DNA of 64,000 bases from Sulfuricurvum sp. GTDB lineage: Bacteria; Campylobacterota; Campylobacteria; Campylobacterales; Sulfurimonadaceae. The stretch is from NCBI GenBank assembly GCA_028710885.1, contig JAQTTG010000005.1:130443-194442 (forward strand), given 5' to 3'. The notes beneath the pieces were generated by a model, which did no database searches, was not told the origin of the DNA, and saw only the letters and a program-made list of their open reading frames with translations. Each line of letters begins with the position of its first letter. Within the stretch, counting starts at the first letter, position 1. A program made the translations under genes and the position numbers. Below are positions 2,722 through 46,606 of the stretch, in pieces.

Positions 2722-3229
2722 TCTAATCTTTTGCACAGAACTGCCAATTCCAGAAAATCGGTTTGTTTATCCCATAAATCTGACTCTGGAAAAGCGATCA
2801 CTTCACCTGTCTGAACATAACCTCTACGCTCATAATACTTTATCAGCTCACTGCGCTGTGTGATGACTTCCATAACGGCTGTGTTGACTCCCCACCACTA
2901 TGTGCTTCGGATTCCGCGTAGGAGAGCAGCGCTTTTCCGATCCCGCTTCCTTGTAGTGTCGGCTCGACGGCGAACAGCCCGAAATGGACGGAGCTGTTTT
3001 CACGATGGGCATGGAGTGTAGCGAGGATCGTTTCATCGGATCGGGCGATGAGTATCAGTGAATCAGGATCATTCAGCAGTTGAAGCAACCCCGCATCATC
3101 AATCCGCGCACCGCTGAGGAGATCGGCTTCGGTCGTCCATCCTGCACGGGAAGAGTCGCCGCGATAGGATCGGTTGATGAGAGAGGTGATGGCGGGTATG
3201 TTGTCGGTGGTAGCGTGATGGAAGGTCAT
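2718..3229 (-). pseudogene. GNAT N-acetyltransferase, frameshifted near its 3' end
   Basis: From the ATG at 3229 the frame encodes a GNAT protein: FHHATTDNIPAITSLINRSY, then the acetyl-CoA loop LQGSGIGKALLSYAE. After SEAHSGG the frame changes and the reading ends in unrelated residues at 2843. In the next frame, from about 2890 down to 2718, the expected C-terminal GNAT half reads on: VNTAVMEVITQRSELIKYYE, then RRGYVQTGE, with a stop at 2718-2720. A change of one base in the GGGGA stretch near 2886-2892 would restore a protein of about 170 residues. This is either a recent inactivating indel or a sequencing error; intact codon use on both sides favours a very recent event. The start at 3229 is preferred over 3310 because an extended -10 (TGCTACAAT) lies just upstream of it. 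Confidence 0.8.
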
Positions 3230-3235
3230 AATGAG

Positions 3236-3241
3236 ATTGTA
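3236..3241 (-). promoter_or_regulatory. -10 element of the GNAT gene (TGCTACAAT)
   Basis: On the minus strand the extended -10 TGC-TACAAT ends six bases before the ATG at 3229. Initiation about seven bases downstream would put the first transcribed base at the start codon, so the mRNA would be leaderless. No Shine-Dalgarno sequence precedes this ATG. Confidence 0.5.
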
Positions 3242-3323
3242 GCATATAGGGGGTCTTAAGAGGGGAAATATAATAACCCTCTCATATCTAACGTATTGGA
3301 TAACAGGCACGGTGACCTATTTG

Positions 3324-4094
3324 TTAGTTGATTACCAAGCCTGCACCGCAATGTGAAGAAAAACAATTTTTCATTATATTCCCCTCACCAAATTTTGTTT
3401 CCTTGGCATTGAACTCAAGGCCGGAATTGGCAACAATATTGGTGACCTCTACAGCAGTAATAGGGAATTCGATAGCCCATTCGCTTATACTCGCATCTGG
3501 GTAACGTTTGACAGCATCATCTATTGTATTTAGTTCAAAAAACTCGACAGATACCATGTCGCCATTGGGATAACTTATTTTCACCTTCTTGGCTGAGGGT
3601 GGGCATTCTATATCTTCCTCGCCACCTACATTGTACCATTCATTGTTCTGTATATAAGCTCTCGACTCATTGTCTTTAGTAAGCATGTGGATATTTAGTA
3701 AGAGATAGTTATTTTCATCTCGCTCAAACCAAATAATCGGTTGCCCTCTGAATTGGAAAATAACTGGTGTTTCGTAATAAAAATTGCCACCCACAACAGC
3801 TAGAAGACGGTTCCTCATCCAGTTGAATTTTCCGCTAATCTGTCTCCAATTATCTTTTCCACTCCGCTTTAAATCGTGAAGTTGTTTTTTTGTGAAAGCA
3901 CCATTATCTGCTTGAATATGATGTTCCCTGCAAAGAGCGATCATACCTTCAGAATTATGGTGATTCTCTTCGTGCCAAGGCGGATCAAAATGGTGCCATT
4001 CGAGGTACGGACGACCACAATCTTGAACAGGACAGCCAAATCCTACTTCGTCCCGAAGTATTTTTTTGACGTCTAATGGAGGATTTCTATTCAT
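3324..4094 (-). CDS. HNH endonuclease domain protein with unassigned C-terminal domain
   Basis: A 256-residue protein. The N-terminal 70 residues form a zinc-stabilised HNH module: Cys21 and Cys26 (CPVQDC), the catalytic His pair at 34-35 (EWHHFDP), Asn47, and a second metal half C55REHH. This fold cleaves DNA and occurs in restriction, phage and homing nucleases. Residues 90-256 are rich in beta strands and match no family I recognise; they may bind a target or a partner. The gene sits alone between a core-type GNAT gene and a HigBA-type toxin-antitoxin pair. Its upstream region resembles that of the large helicase-nuclease gene at 13564-17016, which hints at common control or acquisition. 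Confidence 0.75.
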   Translation of the reverse strand: MNRNPPLDVKKILRDEVGFGCPVQDCGRPYLEWHHFDPPWHEENHHNSEGMIALCREHHIQADNGAFTKKQLHDLKRSGKDNWRQISGKFNWMRNRLLAVVGGNFYYETPVIFQFRGQPIIWFERDENNYLLLNIHMLTKDNESRAYIQNNEWYNVGGEEDIECPPSAKKVKISYPNGDMVSVEFFELNTIDDAVKRYPDASISEWAIEFPITAVEVTNIVANSGLEFNAKETKFGEGNIMKNCFSSHCGAGLVIN

Positions 4095-4116
4095 GGCAAC
4101 CCTTTGTTCAGCTAAT

Positions 4117-4257
4117 TATTTATTCATACCTAAATATACCATTTTGCTATAAATTCACTAGATAATGGAATAATCAAAATGTCTTATTATCCGAAAAATC
4201 TAAGCATAATCATACAAATTGATAGATTTATACATATTATATGTTGTTTTTCTTAAA
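4117..4257 (-). promoter_or_regulatory. Upstream element of the HNH gene, similar to 17047-17174
   Basis: Bases 4117-4146 match 17047-17077 with one substitution and one indel, and 4245-4257 (TGTTTTTCTTAAA) is identical to 17162-17174. The middle is AT-rich and only loosely similar. Read toward the HNH gene, the first block holds two GGTAT direct repeats and a possible extended -10 (GGTATGAAT). The same layout precedes the helicase-nuclease gene. Confidence 0.6.
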
Positions 4258-4324
4258 GTCATTTTTGTGAATGTGACGTGTTGATTTTGGACGTAATTGC
4301 AATCGACTGTCGCAAAGTTATCTA

Positions 4325-4353
4325 TTGACACGATGTATCTAAATGGATACAAT
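4325..4353 (+). promoter_or_regulatory. Sigma70-type promoter of the HigBA-like pair
   Basis: TTGACA at 4325-4330 and TACAAT at 4348-4353 are separated by exactly 17 bases. The -10 ends six bases before the ATG at 4360, so the transcript probably begins at or next to the start codon. Confidence 0.75.
4334..4351. promoter_or_regulatory. Palindromic operator TGTATC-N6-GATACA
   Basis: A perfect inverted repeat with 6-base arms lies between the -35 and -10 boxes and covers half of the -10. This is where the helix-turn-helix antitoxin, alone or with the toxin, would block transcription. Autoregulation is usual for HigBA systems; binding to this site is inferred. Confidence 0.7.
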
Positions 4354-4359
4354 TTGCCC

Positions 4360-4653
4360 ATGTATACCATTCAACAAACCCATAAATTTTCGCAATGGCT
4401 CACTAAACTCAAAGATATGCGTGCCCGTATCGCTATAGCGCGACGTTTGGAACGTGCTCAATGCGGGAATTTGGGAGATGTGAAGAGTGTCGGTGAACGT
4501 GTTTACGAAATGCGTATCGATATGGGGGCAGGTTATCGGCTTTACTACACGATGCGGGGGAATGAACTCATTATTTTGCTCGTTGGTGGTGATAAATCAA
4601 CGCAACAGAGAGACATTTATAAAGCCATAGAGATGGCAAAGGAGATCGAATAA
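4360..4653 (+). CDS. RelE/HigB-type toxin of a type II toxin-antitoxin pair
   Basis: Starting at the internal ATG at 4360 gives 97 residues, the normal size of the COG3657 (addiction module killer, RelE/HigB superfamily) group. It carries the family pattern FSQWLTKLKDMRARIAIARR, the loop GNLGDVKSVGERVYEMRID, and the C-terminal core GYRLYYTMRGNELIILLVGG. Related toxins cleave mRNA on the ribosome. A longer reading from 4297 would cross the promoter and operator, so it is rejected. The toxin comes first and overlaps the antitoxin start by one base (TAATG), the reversed order typical of higBA. Confidence 0.88.
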   Translation: MYTIQQTHKFSQWLTKLKDMRARIAIARRLERAQCGNLGDVKSVGERVYEMRIDMGAGYRLYYTMRGNELIILLVGGDKSTQQRDIYKAIEMAKEIE

Positions 4654-4946
4654 TGGAAACAACATTAAGCCCATTTGATATGACGCAGTATTTGGACAGC
4701 GAAGAAGCGATTGCCGAATACCTCACGCAAGTTCTCGAAGATGGTGATACGGATGAACTGATCCGTGCTATCGGTCATATCGCCAAAGCTCGCGGCATGA
4801 GCCAAATCGCACAAGAAAGCGGATTAGGACGAGAGAGCCTCTATAAAACATTCGCTCCGGGGTCGAAACCCCGCTTCGATACTATCGCCAAAGTGGTAAA
4901 ATCGTTGGGATTGCATTTTCATATTACGCCGCTTAAAGCGTCGTAG
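4653..4946 (+). CDS. HigA-like helix-turn-helix antitoxin
   Basis: A 97-residue partner of the preceding toxin, from the COG3636 (addiction module antidote) family. The N-terminal region (DMTQYLDSEEAIAEYLTQVL) is probably the toxin-neutralising part. The C-terminal half has a Cro/C1-type helix-turn-helix: MSQIAQESGLGRESLYKTF, then PRFDTIAKVVKSLGL. It should bind the palindrome at 4334-4351 and repress its own operon. The 1-base overlap with the toxin gene suggests translational coupling. The pair lies next to the HNH nuclease, so this is a small accessory island. Confidence 0.88.
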   Translation: METTLSPFDMTQYLDSEEAIAEYLTQVLEDGDTDELIRAIGHIAKARGMSQIAQESGLGRESLYKTFAPGSKPRFDTIAKVVKSLGLHFHITPLKAS

Positions 4947-4958
4947 TCGAGAAGCTGA

Positions 4959-5489
4959 TTAATTATTCTCGATTTTTAACGTATTAAAAATGATGTCGGT
5001 CGCGAGCATCCGCGTCGCATGGTTCACCGCTTCTAAGATATCGCTATCACTCCATCCCATTTCTCTAAGTGAATCCAAATCATCCGCATTAACCGAGTGG
5101 GCGAGACGGATAGCTTTTATAACTAGTTTGAGCATTGCAATTTCACGTGCAGGTAAGTTGGCATCGTCGATATTGCGGCGCATTGCCGCAACTTGCTCGA
5201 ATGTCCATCCCGCCATGTTAATCAACATCCCCGTATTGTAATCGATACAAAACTGACACTCTTCGCTACTTGAAACCATGATTCGGATCGCGGCGAGCAA
5301 CGGCATCGAGAGGGTCGGATGGTTCATATAAAACTTGATGAAATCCATTTGTTGACGCAACAACTCAGGGCTTGCGCTGAAGAGTTTGGCATTGTTGCCG
5401 ACGTTTCCGCGCATTTTTTCGATGAGCGTGTAGAGTTTGGCTAACTCGCCGGTCGCTTCGGAGGGTTCAATCGTCTGAATGAGTGGCAT
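4959..5489 (-). CDS. Carboxymuconolactone decarboxylase/AhpD-like protein
   Basis: A 176-residue all-helical protein of the AhpD-like superfamily. The CxxC redox pair is in EECQFCIDYN, as in alkylhydroperoxidases, where the two thiols reduce peroxide with electrons from a dithiol donor. It is transcribed away from the TetR gene at 5582, and the shared 90-base intergenic region contains two palindromes. The arrangement suggests the TetR protein represses this gene. The substrate is unknown; the true gamma-carboxymuconolactone decarboxylase activity is unlikely outside a protocatechuate pathway. A related gene occurs at 20983. Confidence 0.82.
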   Translation of the reverse strand: MPLIQTIEPSEATGELAKLYTLIEKMRGNVGNNAKLFSASPELLRQQMDFIKFYMNHPTLSMPLLAAIRIMVSSSEECQFCIDYNTGMLINMAGWTFEQVAAMRRNIDDANLPAREIAMLKLVIKAIRLAHSVNADDLDSLREMGWSDSDILEAVNHATRMLATDIIFNTLKIENN

Positions 5490-5510
5490 GAGAGATCCTT
5501 TTGGATGATG

Positions 5511-5560
5511 TTGACTGTTTGGTCAAGTGGCATTATAAAACGATTTGACCAAATAGTCAA
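5511..5560. promoter_or_regulatory. Two TTGAC-N6-GTCAA operators between AhpD-like and TetR genes
   Basis: TTGACTGTTTGGTCAA (5511-5526) and TTGACCAAATAGTCAA (5545-5560) are each inverted repeats with 5-base arms. They are also near-perfect reverse complements of one another. The right copy covers the presumed -35 of the TetR gene, whose TATAAT is at 5570-5575. This layout suits binding of two TetR dimers that repress both divergent genes. Confidence 0.8.
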
Positions 5561-5581
5561 GTGATGTGTTATAATTTCAAA

Positions 5582-6154
5582 ATGAAAGAGAATACGAGAC
5601 AACGATTAATCGACGCGACCTATGAAGAGGTCTATTCGCACGGCTATCAGGGTGCCGCACTCGCTGATATCCTCGCCAATGCTGGAGTACACAAGGGGTC
5701 GATGTACCACTTTTTCCCGAATAAAAAAGAGATGGCATTATCGGCGATAAAAGAGAAGATGGGGGAACGGTTTGCAACCCGTTACCAAGCGATCAAAGAA
5801 TCCGATGGGCGTTATCTAGAGCAGTTTTTTGCGATGCTGCGCGATGGTAATATTCGTGATTTTAAACGGGGGTGTCCACTTGCCAATCTCGTCCAAGAGA
5901 TGTCAAACATCGATGAGGATTTTGATCGCACTCTCAAAGTGATCTACGCGCAGTTTCGTAAAATTCTCAAATCGATTTACGATGCGGCAATTCGTGCGGG
6001 CGAGATGCGAGAGTGCGATACTGGCAAATTGGCCCTTTTTTCGGTTTCACTACTGGAAGGGGCGCTCCTCTCGGCGAAAGCATCGGGAAAACCGCAAGAT
6101 TATTTTGATTCGGTCGAGATGCTAATCGGGTATATCGAGTCGCTTCGTTACTGA
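5582..6154 (+). CDS. TetR/AcrR family transcriptional regulator
   Basis: From the ATG at 5582 the protein has 190 residues. The N-terminal TetR helix-turn-helix is clear: RQRLIDATYEEVYSHGYQGA, then ILANAGVHKGSMYHFFPNKK. The rest is the helical ligand-binding and dimerisation domain; the GCPLANLVQEMS segment resembles the TetR C-terminal group around YxaF/LmrA. TATAAT ends six bases before this ATG and there is no ribosome site, so the mRNA is probably leaderless; a GTG at 5561 is possible but would begin before the likely first transcribed base. It probably represses itself and the divergent AhpD-like gene. Its 3' end overlaps the convergent dioxygenase gene by 7 bases. Confidence 0.87.
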   Translation: MKENTRQRLIDATYEEVYSHGYQGAALADILANAGVHKGSMYHFFPNKKEMALSAIKEKMGERFATRYQAIKESDGRYLEQFFAMLRDGNIRDFKRGCPLANLVQEMSNIDEDFDRTLKVIYAQFRKILKSIYDAAIRAGEMRECDTGKLALFSVSLLEGALLSAKASGKPQDYFDSVEMLIGYIESLRY

Positions 6155-6993
6155 TACAGCAACCAGTTTCGCATACTGAGCGTACCGTGTGAAAATCCTT
6201 CATAGGGGAAGGTACTTTTATCCTCTTCTCCCATACATCCTGCTACATAGAGCAGGGGGATATAGTGCTCCAGTGTCGGATGGGCAATTTCGGCATAGGG
6301 TGCTGCTTCACGAAAGCCGATTAGCGCATCGATATCACGGGACTCGATAGCCTCTTTGACATAGGTATCAAATGCGGCCGCCCATTCACGCACCGGAGCA
6401 TCCGGATCGGGGTCAACACGTGAGAGGTTGTGGGTGATGTTGCCGCTGCCGATGATCATGATGCCGTAATCACGTAAGCTTTGCAGTTTTTTTCCTACTT
6501 CGTAGTGTTCCCGCAGACTCAGATCACGATTTATTCCTAACTGCATAACGGGGACGTTTGCATTCGGATAGAGATGTTTGAGGACCGTCCATGCACCGTG
6601 ATCGAGTGCGCGCTCTTTTACTAATAGATTGGGGAAAAGTTCTTCCATCTGCGGGCATAGGAATTCAGCGTTGGGTGCAGGATACTGCACTTGATATAGC
6701 GGCTCTGGAAAACCAAAAAAATCATACATCAAAGCAGGGCTATGGTGCACCGATACGCCGTAAAACGGCGGCGTCCAGTGGGCAGATACGACGAGGATCG
6801 CTTTGGGTTCGGGAATCATTTTTCCCAGCGCTTTTAGCGAGTGGGTAAAGTCGTTCTCTTCGATCCCGATCATCGGGCTGCCATGCCCTACGAAAAAGGC
6901 GGGAGCACGACGTCGTTCATCAGTGGCATTAAGTGGCATGAGGGCACCTCCGAGTGCTAATGCGATCAGTTTTAAAAAATGGTTGCGGGTCAT
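6148..6993 (-). CDS. DODA-type (LigB family) extradiol ring-opening dioxygenase
   Basis: A 281-residue class III extradiol dioxygenase-like protein (YgiD/4,5-DOPA dioxygenase group). The Fe/Zn-binding histidines expected for the family are present in FFVGHGSPM, VVSAHWTPP, RALDHGAWTVL and the C-terminal THNLSR and EHYIPLLY segments. Unusually for this family there is a hydrophobic N-terminus (FLKLIALALGGALMPLNA) that looks like a secretion signal, so the enzyme may act in the periplasm. It lies 15 bases downstream of the yceI-like gene and probably shares its transcript under the MarR-type regulator. The natural substrate, presumably a catechol, is unknown. Confidence 0.85.
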   Translation of the reverse strand: MTRNHFLKLIALALGGALMPLNATDERRRAPAFFVGHGSPMIGIEENDFTHSLKALGKMIPEPKAILVVSAHWTPPFYGVSVHHSPALMYDFFGFPEPLYQVQYPAPNAEFLCPQMEELFPNLLVKERALDHGAWTVLKHLYPNANVPVMQLGINRDLSLREHYEVGKKLQSLRDYGIMIIGSGNITHNLSRVDPDPDAPVREWAAAFDTYVKEAIESRDIDALIGFREAAPYAEIAHPTLEHYIPLLYVAGCMGEEDKSTFPYEGFSHGTLSMRNWLLYQ

Positions 6994-7008
6994 GTTTGCC
7001 CCTTTGAC

Positions 7009-7581
7009 TTATTTGTTCAGTAACCCTTCGAGCATGATATCAAGTTTTACGATTTCTCCGACGACAATACCGCCCGTTTCGAGTGTTTTGTTCCAGTTAA
7101 TGCCATAATCTTTACGATTAAGATTTCCGCTGAGTTCTAATCCTAGACGTTGATTTCCCCACGGATCTTTGACAATGCCGTTGTTTTCCAGATTGAGGAC
7201 GATATTTTTGGTCACACCGTGCATCGTGAGTTTGCCGTAAGCTTTGTCTCCTTTTACCTGATCGAGGACAAACGTCATTTCGGGGAACGCTTTTGTATCG
7301 AACAGATCAGGTGACTTGAGATGGGCATCGCGTTTTTCATTGGAAGTATTGATCGAATTGACATCGATTTTTCCGATCAAGGCATTTAATGATTTGGTTT
7401 TTTCATCATAATCGGCACTGCCGCTGAATTTGTCGAATTTCCCGCTGACGTCGGAAATCATCATATGTTTGACTTTGAAGCCTACGCTGGAGTGTTCGGT
7501 ATCGATTGTGTAGGTTCCGGCGAACAAAGAGGCTGAACTCAAAAGGATGAAAGAGGCAAGTGTAGAGAATGTTTTTTTCAT
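7009..7581 (-). CDS. YceI family periplasmic lipid/isoprenoid-binding protein
   Basis: A 190-residue protein with a clean signal peptide (ending ...LFAG, cleavage near residue 22) and the lipocalin-like YceI fold: YTIDTEHSSVGFKVKHM, then VSGKFDKFSGS, the MTFVLDQVKG strand and a C-terminal GEIVKLDIMLEG. YceI proteins bind isoprenoid chains such as those of quinone precursors and are induced by base or stress in E. coli. The ATG follows AGAAGGA. A 234-base leader separates it from the MarR-type gene, and a MarR-type palindrome lies far upstream at 7787-7798, suggesting that MarR controls this yceI-dioxygenase unit. Confidence 0.9.
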   Translation of the reverse strand: MKKTFSTLASFILLSSASLFAGTYTIDTEHSSVGFKVKHMMISDVSGKFDKFSGSADYDEKTKSLNALIGKIDVNSINTSNEKRDAHLKSPDLFDTKAFPEMTFVLDQVKGDKAYGKLTMHGVTKNIVLNLENNGIVKDPWGNQRLGLELSGNLNRKDYGINWNKTLETGGIVVGEIVKLDIMLEGLLNK

Positions 7582-45475: not shown

Positions 45476-45769
45476 ATGATCACCAAACTGAAAATTCTCG
45501 CTTTTCTGTCGGATCATAAAGAGACGATGAACGAGCGTTTTGGCGTAACGCAGATTGGATTATTCGGCAGTTACGCACGAGATGAAGCAAATGAAGAGAG
45601 CGATGTGGATATTGCCGTCGAGATCGATGCTCCCAACAAATTTAGAAGTTTTTTTGGACTAAAACACTATTTGGAAACCAACCTCTATCCTAAAATTGAC
45701 CTCGGAATCGAAAGCACCCTCAAACCTATCGCTAAAGAGTTCGTGAGCAAAGAGATCATTTATGTCTAA
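45476..45769 (+). CDS. MntA-type minimal nucleotidyltransferase (antitoxin)
   Basis: A 97-residue MNT-domain protein with the active-site pattern GLFGSYARDEANEESDVDIAVE (Gly31-Ser32, Asp43 and Asp45). In HepT/MntA (type VII) systems such an enzyme adds AMP to the HepT toxin and thereby neutralises it. The ATG follows GAGGAGG. The next start codon overlaps its stop (ATGTCTAA), the usual mntA-hepT arrangement, but that partner is broken by a repeat element, so this antitoxin now seems orphaned. Confidence 0.85.
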   Translation: MITKLKILAFLSDHKETMNERFGVTQIGLFGSYARDEANEESDVDIAVEIDAPNKFRSFFGLKHYLETNLYPKIDLGIESTLKPIAKEFVSKEIIYV

Positions 45770-45818
45770 ACGCGATTATTATCTCTATGTCAGCGATCCG
45801 CTCGTTCCCACTTTCTAA
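45762..45818 (+). pseudogene. Truncated HepT-like toxin gene
   Basis: The frame opens MSKRDYYLYVSD, a normal HepT/DUF86 beginning, overlaps the MntA-like stop by 8 bases and ends after 18 residues inside a palindromic repeat. HepT proteins usually have about 115-140 residues, and no continuation is seen in any frame downstream. I therefore read it as a gene remnant destroyed by deletion or by insertion of the repeat. Confidence 0.65.
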
Positions 45819-45880
45819 GTGGGAATGCATATAATTGAATGATAGCTATACACTCCCACTCAGGAGAGTGGGAGCGAGGG
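45799..45880. repeat. REPIN-like pair of inverted REP hairpins
   Basis: Hairpin 1 has arms TTCCCACTT/AAGTGGGAA with a 3-base loop (45805-45825). Hairpin 2 has arms CTCCCACTC/GAGTGGGAG with a 4-base loop (45853-45874). Each is flanked outside by CTCG-type sequence and inside by TG-pyrimidine-ATA; reversing the second aligns it with the first over about 30 bases with few differences. Two REP units in inverted orientation are the mark of a REPIN, mobilised in trans by a RAYT transposase. No RAYT gene is in the window. Confidence 0.7.
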
Positions 45881-45881
45881 A

Positions 45882-45936
45882 AAAGAGTTTGTGAGTAAAG
45901 AAATTATTTATGTCTAAAAAATTATTGAAGGTTTAA
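45882..45936 (+). pseudogene. Remnant of a second MntA-HepT junction
   Basis: Bases 45882-45918 repeat 45734-45770 with 4 differences in 37. Both encode KEFVSKEIIYV, a stop and an overlapping MSK start, and all four changes are synonymous. The second MSK frame ends after eight residues. This is the 3' tip of a former second nucleotidyltransferase gene that evolved under selection before loss. Confidence 0.68.
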
Positions 45937-45937
45937 A

Positions 45938-46606
45938 ATGAAAATACTTTTTAGCGCGATTGTAATGATTGTATTAAGTTGTAATATTATAGCTGATAAT
46001 AACATATCTACTAAAAATATTGAATCCGCTAAATACAGTATTCAAGAACACGGAAGCAAGACAAACTCATTTACTGTTCAGTCTCTTCCTGTAATGAAAA
46101 TTGAGGTTACTCAGCCCGTAAACTGGTATTTGATTTTATTACCAATAACTACAATAGTCATTGTTATTGCAGGATTTTTGATTACACTTACGCAAATAAT
46201 AAGAAAGTCTGAAGAATCGATACGAACATCGAAGATGGAAGTACTATCAAAAAACCGTCAAGCTTGGATTAATACCCTTAGAGATGATATTTCAAATTTT
46301 ATCGGTCAGGTAGATTTTGTACAAAAAAATGTATCGCTACATTATAAAGAGGACTCAACTGAAGCTGAGAAGGTTACTGCCAAGGAAGTGATTTTAGGGG
46401 CTAATAAAATGAGAGAACAAAAGTCAAAAATAGAATTACTTATTAACCCAAATGAAGAAAAACATATTAAGTTGGTTACATTATTAGAACTGACGATAGA
46501 TAATTTACAAAAAAGAATAAATAACGATATCAATATTAAAAATATTACTATTTTGGCACAAGAAATATTGAAAGAAGAATGGACAAGAGTGAAAAGGGGA
46601 GATTAA
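45938..46606 (+). CDS. Hypothetical single-pass membrane protein
   Basis: A 222-residue protein with a hydrophobic N-terminus (FSAIVMIVLSCNIIA, likely a signal peptide), a short external part, a strong transmembrane helix (about 63-88, LILLPITTIVIVIAGFLITL) and a cytoplasmic helical tail containing SKNRQAWINTLRDDISNFIG. I do not recognise the family. It is AT-rich beside GC-richer neighbours and follows the toxin-antitoxin scar, so it is probably acquired. It converges with clpX, 20 bases apart. Confidence 0.72.
   Translation: MKILFSAIVMIVLSCNIIADNNISTKNIESAKYSIQEHGSKTNSFTVQSLPVMKIEVTQPVNWYLILLPITTIVIVIAGFLITLTQIIRKSEESIRTSKMEVLSKNRQAWINTLRDDISNFIGQVDFVQKNVSLHYKEDSTEAEKVTAKEVILGANKMREQKSKIELLINPNEEKHIKLVTLLELTIDNLQKRINNDINIKNITILAQEILKEEWTRVKRGD

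What the first reader, a model, noticed from the sequence alone, without database searches (positions are those of the whole stretch)
45799..45880. REPIN-like double hairpin in a toxin-antitoxin scar
Two 9-bp GTGGGA-type hairpins in inverted orientation with matching flanks form a REPIN. REPs need a RAYT transposase. They are well known in gamma- and beta-proteobacteria and less so in this phylum, and here one ends the hepT frame.
Basis: partly seen in the sequence, partly recalled or inferred. Interest (0 to 1): 0.55.

Follow-up and report, generated by a model that had tools for sequence, protein, structure and literature searches.

The report
REPIN with cognate transposase, beside broken toxin gene
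The double hairpin is a real miniature mobile element of a known general kind (a REPIN): the same genome carries further copies and the matching transposase gene, but this family has its own conserved end sequences, and here it sits at the break point of a lost toxin gene.

Summary
Two perfect 9-bp hairpins (45805-45825, 45853-45874) lie inverted with matching feet CTCG/CGAG. Neither refuter applies: the genome holds nine intact hairpins of the family, including a second doublet, and one intact RAYT gene (98.6 bits, cut-off 80) between two inverted copies. Of 80 named RAYT loci, 56 have a strict repeat within 600 nt in the expected orientation, 72 under looser rules. Stems covary, match at both ends of one gene (25 of 27) and follow the RAYT tree. 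The feet are CTCG and TGCATA, not the classic GT[AG]G; by published motifs the RAYT resembles subclass 2.6 (group 5). The hepT frame does end in the left hairpin; two relatives keep mntA-hepT intact, one with half of this REPIN downstream. A 37-nt copy of the mntA tail right of the element points to a rearrangement, not a usual target duplication (0 of 20 lone REP loci). Mobility was not shown. New variant of a known kind.

The parts
45801..45804 (+). left outer foot CTCG (unpaired in the single hairpin, pairs with the right foot in the doublet fold)
   Evidence: conserved around RAYT-flanking hairpins
45805..45825 (+). left REP hairpin, 9-bp stem, loop TCT
45826..45831 (+). left inner flank TGCATA
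45832..45846 (.). spacer between the two REPs; shared, with the right hairpin, by G065 at the same locus (92% over 51 nt)
45847..45852 (-). right inner flank TATACA (one mismatch to TATGCA)
45853..45874 (-). right REP hairpin, 9-bp stem, loop AGGA, inverted to the left one
45875..45878 (-). right outer foot CGAG
45476..45769 (+). mntA-like antitoxin gene (NTP_transf_2), 97 aa, reading frame intact
   Evidence: NCBIfam MntA model 43.2 bits, below its cut-off of 60
45762..45818 (+). hepT remnant: first 12 codons as in relatives, then read-through into the REPIN and stop in the left hairpin
45734..45770 (+). left copy of the 37-nt direct repeat (mntA tail plus hepT start)
45882..45918 (+). right copy of the 37-nt repeat, 33 of 37 identical, the four differences all at third codon positions and synonymous
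45938..46606 (+). ORF of 222 aa without family assignment, right of the scar; no full-length DNA match in 227 other family genomes

Best explanation
45801-45878 is a REPIN: a non-autonomous doublet of two inverted REP hairpins, a cut-down version of the unit REP-RAYT-inverted REP that stands elsewhere in this genome (G000:C13). The RAYT, a single-strand HUH transposase, most likely recognises the hairpin together with its conserved flanks (CTCG outside, TGCATA inside) in single-stranded DNA and cuts and joins it, so that the doublet could be copied or moved in trans. The element came to lie behind an mntA-hepT toxin-antitoxin pair in an ancestor shared with, or by exchange with, relative G065; in this lineage a rearrangement that ends at the REPIN's left foot removed all but the first 12 codons of the toxin gene and left the antitoxin gene whole. 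Shown: anatomy, copies, RAYT, linkage, covariation, intact relatives. Inferred: recognition, cutting and movement by this RAYT, and the order of events at the scar.
For: Nine intact hairpins and one RAYT flanked by two inverted copies in the own genome. In 228 family genomes, 41 of 43 with a RAYT hit have the flank-defined motif against 70 of 185 without (Fisher p 5e-13; reversed-pattern control 0 in all 228). Of 80 named RAYT loci 56 have a strict repeat (50 upstream, 43 downstream), 1.22 per kb near the gene against 0.065 per kb beyond 1200 nt, shuffles 0. Inner stem pairs 211 of 234 complementary against a null mean of 114 and maximum of 147 in 1000; the two ends of one gene share the stem in 25 of 27 loci, permutation maximum 9. 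Stem type needs 19 changes on the RAYT tree against 30 or more in 300 shuffles. RAYT profile matches E. coli TnpA-REP 4er8 (E 1.5e-5). Intact hepT in G045 and G065, half of this REPIN in G065 at the same place.
Against: No excision, insertion or cutting was seen. Copy number is low, and 5 of the 9 intact hairpins are not in short doublets. No empty/filled pair at base resolution was found for this element: G065 has only its right half, so whether the left half was lost there or never present is open. The 37-nt repeat at the scar is not explained by REP movement as such. Shared ancestry inflates the genome-level p-value.
Confidence: 0.82

Rival explanations
1. On the history of the scar: insertion by homology. 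A DNA piece or circle carrying [mntA tail - hepT start - REPIN] from a G045-like donor joined the resident mntA by recombination in the 37-nt tail, so that the left tail is donor DNA and the right copy is the resident's old tail.
For: 45730-45797 is 67/68 identical to G045 while 45476-45729 is 217/254 (Fisher p 0.0012; the same split between G045 and G065 is not significant, p 0.38); the right copy is 33/37. Gene-tail repeats also flank REP units in this genome at another gene tail (25 nt, 100%) and at a ferredoxin gene (289 nt, 90%).
Against: A single locus and a short region; the end of mntA overlaps hepT and may simply be more constrained. Lone REP loci: 0 of 20 have such repeats.
Confidence: 0.3
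2. On the history of the scar: deletion between two tandem mntA-hepT copies with the REPIN at the join; the right 37 nt are the tail of a second mntA.
For: All four differences of the right copy are synonymous third-position changes, as expected of a copy that was once a working gene.
Against: No relative with a tandem arrangement was seen; all four changes are also C/G to T/A, as in neutral decay.
Confidence: 0.35
3. The hairpins are ordinary transcription terminators or RNA stabilisers kept for the host, and the RAYT link is incidental.
For: Strong stems in an intergenic stretch.
Against: No T-run: the terminator scan marks neither hairpin. Unpaired flanks are conserved, and copies cluster at RAYT genes.
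Confidence: 0.04
4. The repeats belong to the CGTC superfamily (dRS3-like), for which no dedicated transposase is known.
For: Similar build: short unpaired tag, TTCCC..GGGAA stem, NCA tail; the CGTC type also occurs in 52 of 228 family genomes.
Against: Different tag and tail; CGTC copies are concentrated in two genera (g1, g15) and abundant without a RAYT hit (98 in G077), while the present repeats sit at RAYT genes.
Confidence: 0.05

Closest known systems
REPIN / BIME of Pseudomonas and E. coli (PMC3116915, passages read)
   Same: two inverted REPs with a short spacer, RAYT in the genome, outer ends can pair
   Different: low copy number (two doublets here), other flanks, most hairpins not in short doublets
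TnpA-REP / RAYT subclass 2.6 = group 5 (PMC6006769, passages and table read)
   Same: NHLH, WQ, YIHNNP, SS in the tail, 177 aa against a median of 179, HUH-Y distance 79 against 82; flanking structures without GT[AG]G
   Different: published members mostly Bacteroidetes with atypical, weaker structures; here Campylobacterota with strong, well-defined hairpins
Classic GT[AG]G REPs and their RAYTs, groups 2 and 3 (PMC2817692, PMC8266576, passages read)
   Same: RAYT flanked by two inverted REPs, compensatory stem changes, REP type following the RAYT
   Different: feet CTCG/TGCATA instead of GT[AG]G
CGTC repeats / Neisseria dRS3 (PMC3733652, abstract, passages, sections 5, 6, 16 read)
   Same: TTCCC-type stems with unpaired tag and tail
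   Different: no transposase association reported for them; other tag and tail

Membership tests
REPIN | two REPs in inverted orientation, close together | tested here: met
REPIN | further copies in the genome | tested here: met
   second doublet at G000:C13:47450 and five other intact hairpins
REPIN | doublets outnumber singlets | tested here: not met
   two doublets (4 hairpins) against the RAYT pair and three singlets; small numbers
REPIN | mobility | not testable with these tools
   needs sequencing of cultures or an assay
RAYT (TnpA-REP) | family profile | tested here: met
   NF047646 98.6 bits over cut-off 80; PF01797 28.2 over 23
RAYT (TnpA-REP) | HUH motif and catalytic tyrosine | tested here: met
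   NHLH and YIHNNP; H61, H63, Y139 invariant in 19 aligned rows
[quoted passage not shown]
RAYT (TnpA-REP) | GT[AG]G foot on the REP | tested here: not met
   foot profile CTCG / TGCATA; also not expected for subclass 2.6 (PMC6006769)
RAYT subclass 2.6 (group 5) | published motifs, length and HUH-Y spacing | tested here: met
   against the table in PMC6006769
RAYT subclass 2.6 (group 5) | placement in the TnpA-Y1 tree or by the authors' profiles; 21-aa insertion | not tested
   their sequences and profiles were not at hand
CGTC repeats | CGTC tag and CCA tail | tested here: not met
   separate distribution
MntA-HepT toxin-antitoxin | complete antitoxin and toxin genes | tested here: not met
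   mntA intact but below the NCBIfam cut-off; hepT reduced to 12 native codons; HepT intact in G045 and G065

The most novel reading that the evidence does not exclude
A RAYT lineage that reads a different end signal (CTCG outside, TGCATA inside) drives REP units that carry short tails of neighbouring host genes and re-enter at the same gene tail by homology, so that REP units come to be flanked by gene-tail duplications and can break or replace gene ends, here a toxin gene. Non-REP direct repeats of 25-86 nt flank 6 of 76 RAYT loci (none of 25 nt or more expected), besides three sites in this genome.
Probability: 0.13. Interest if true: 0.62.

Novelty: new variant of a known kind. Interest (0 to 1): 0.42.

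Why it matters
It gives a RAYT group whose partner repeats had been described only as atypical a clear partner: hairpins with conserved feet, covarying stems, and stem types that follow the transposase tree. That makes the recognition rule of a RAYT without GT[AG]G directly testable. The site itself is a worked case of a REPIN at the break point of a lost toxin gene. The many natural pairs of transposase and repeat also allow swap experiments.

Tried and rejected
Target-site duplication as the general source of the 37-nt repeat: rejected, 0 of 20 lone REP loci have a non-REP direct repeat of 14 nt or more within 500 nt. Terminator: neither hairpin is marked by the scan. A RAYT role for CGTC repeats: their distribution does not follow RAYT hits. 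Paper searches for this repeat or for RAYTs in this phylum gave no description of this pairing; one search listed 20 of 472 papers, by their titles unrelated, one search listed 15 of 262, one search listed 25 of 6,074 (most of them 'raytracing' and the like). Subscription papers, among them the 2017 definition of groups 1-5, are not held. A family for the 222-aa ORF was sought and not found. The first family-wide REP pattern (CCCAC/GTGGG stems only) missed other stem types and was replaced by the flank-defined one; with the first pattern the RAYT association was weaker (19 of 43 against 22 of 185, p 6e-6).

Full report
Observation. The window holds, at 45801-45878, two perfect 9-bp hairpins in inverted order: CTCG-TTCCCACTT-TCT-AAGTGGGAA-TGCATA, a 15-nt spacer, then TATACA-CTCCCACTC-AGGA-GAGTGGGAG-CGAG. 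The core pattern occurs twice in the window and in none of 100 shuffles, and the stretch folds as single-stranded DNA with z = -5.7, the two outer feet pairing with each other. The hepT frame that opens at 45762 ends with the TAA at 45816-45818, inside the left hairpin.

Copies and transposase in the same genome. The assembly G000 has 2.64 Mb in 29 contigs. DNA and pattern searches give nine intact hairpins of the family: the two in the window, a second doublet at C13:47450-47531 (its right hairpin with one changed base), two that flank a transposase gene (C13:48322 and 48938), and three single ones in one direction at C13:321719, 322271 and 323435; at least two decayed copies follow at C13:324006 and 325714. 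One Y1 transposase gene was found. It encodes 177 aa (L030:3858-4391 minus), scores 98.6 bits against NCBI's REP-associated tyrosine transposase model (cut-off 80), and an alignment of 19 RAYTs matches solved E. coli TnpA-REP, 4er8 (E 1.5e-5). Its gene stands between two inverted copies of the repeat, CTCG outward and TGCATA inward.

Family survey. In 228 genomes of the same family, 43 have a RAYT hit at E 1e-10 or better, 12 of them only fragments. The flank-defined motif CTCGTTCC-N12..17-GGAATGCA is in 111 of 228, with 0 hits of the reversed control in any. It is in 41 of 43 genomes with a RAYT hit and in 70 of 185 without (p 5e-13, mean copies 5.9 against 0.9). Shared ancestry makes that p-value too small, and the 70 show that repeats persist without a detected RAYT. 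The genus of the window is most likely Sulfuricurvum: contigs of same-genus genomes G056, G061 and G074 have the lengths of named Sulfuricurvum records; this is inference.

Named RAYT loci. A scan of GTDB genomes found 512 relatives, of which the best 80 were kept: mostly Campylobacterota, some Gammaproteobacteria, one record titled Hydrogenedentota. A strict repeat (at most one mismatch in each foot, stem of 8 or more) lies within 600 nt in the expected orientation in 56 of 80, 50 upstream and 43 downstream; density is 1.22 per kb near the gene, 0.065 per kb beyond 1200 nt, and 0 in shuffles. With looser rules it is 72 of 80; in the printed flanks of the other 8 I see decayed or foot-changed forms by eye. 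In the 30 RAYT loci of the family survey that were fetched, 28 have such a hairpin within 400 nt, by eye.

Covariation and co-evolution. Sites picked by their flanks and outer stem bases (81 loci examined, 91 sites in 58 loci, 47 distinct hairpins, 20 stem types) have 211 of 234 inner pairs complementary, against a mean of 114 and a maximum of 147 in 1000 re-pairings. Where both ends of a RAYT gene have a site, the 9-nt stem is the same in 25 of 27 loci (permutation mean 3.1, maximum 9). On a tree of 74 RAYT proteins, stem type in 52 labelled rows needs 19 changes, against a mean of 34.6 and a minimum of 30 in 300 shuffles. So the hairpin is kept as a structure, and each RAYT lineage keeps its own stem while the unpaired feet stay: CTCG at 77-89% per base and TGCATA at 68-84% per base among 176 hairpins picked without regard to the feet.

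Which RAYT. The published table for subclass 2.6 (group 5) gives NH[LIV]H, WQ, YIH[QN]NP, a tail with SS, median length 179, HUH-Y distance 82, and flanking structures without GT[AG]G that were found only by hand, mostly in Bacteroidetes (PMC6006769, passages and table). This RAYT has NHLH, WQ, YIHNNP, SS, 177 aa and 79. I treat this as resemblance: placement with the authors' profiles was not possible. Classic REPs carry GT[AG]G, which takes part in recognition and choice of the cutting site in groups 2 and 3 (PMC8266576, PMC2817692, passages). Here that feature was tested and is absent, so the feet CTCG and TGCATA are the candidates for that role (inference).

The scar. In G045 mntA and hepT are intact and followed directly by the clpX end, with no repeat; in G065 they are intact and followed by the right hairpin and spacer of this same element (92% over 51 nt), then clpX (clpX named from recall of its sequence). 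Both HepT proteins match PF01934. In the window the hepT frame follows theirs for 12 codons, then joins the REPIN. mntA is intact; it scores 43.2 bits against the NCBIfam MntA model, under the cut-off of 60, and well over the Pfam NTP_transf_2 cut-off.

The 37-nt repeat. Right of the REPIN stands a second copy of the mntA tail plus hepT start, 33 of 37 identical, with four synonymous third-position differences. The left tail and hepT start are 67 of 68 identical to G045, the rest of mntA 217 of 254 (p 0.0012). Either the left tail came in with the REPIN from a G045-like donor, or two tandem pairs were fused by deletion; the data do not decide. It is not a usual target duplication: 0 of 20 lone REP loci have one. 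But 6 of 76 RAYT loci have non-REP direct repeats of 25-86 nt around the unit, with none expected, several of them at gene tails, and this genome has two more such cases.

Verdict. A true REPIN with its RAYT, of a variant with its own feet, in a toxin-antitoxin scar. The kind is known; the precise pairing of this RAYT group with this repeat across Campylobacterota was not found in the papers searched, a library that lacks most subscription journals. Mobility and mechanism remain inferred.

Noticed in passing
L031 (G000:C13:318500-328500), 3209-7245: Single REPs in one direction separate small unrelated ORFs (a Gp49-like/HTH pair, a DUF2846-like protein, others), cassette-like, beside a truncated ferredoxin gene copy (90% over 289 nt).
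   Followed up: partly
L030, 2908-2932 and 4472-4496: A perfect 25-nt direct repeat of the tail of a small gene (diacylglycerol-kinase-like, from recall) encloses REPIN, a 274-aa ORF and the RAYT unit.
   Followed up: partly
L180, L201, L139, L206, L145, L202: Non-REP direct repeats of 25-86 nt flank the RAYT unit, several of them at or next to gene tails.
   Followed up: partly
family genomes, e.g. G077 (98 copies), G056 (69), G066 (52): CGTC/dRS3-like repeats (GTCATTCC..GGAATCCA) are abundant in some genomes of two genera and do not follow RAYT hits.
   Followed up: partly
G162: 26 copies of the CTCG/TGCA motif with no RAYT hit at E 1e-10: lost transposase, divergent one, or assembly gap.
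   Followed up: no
L179, L186, L187, L188, L199, L210: A stem class TTCCCA-T-CCG..CGG-TGGGAA with an unpaired T, reminiscent of the bulge of E. coli REPs.
   Followed up: no
window 45938-46606: Orphan 222-aa ORF between the scar and clpX, without a full-length DNA relative in 227 other family genomes.
   Followed up: partly
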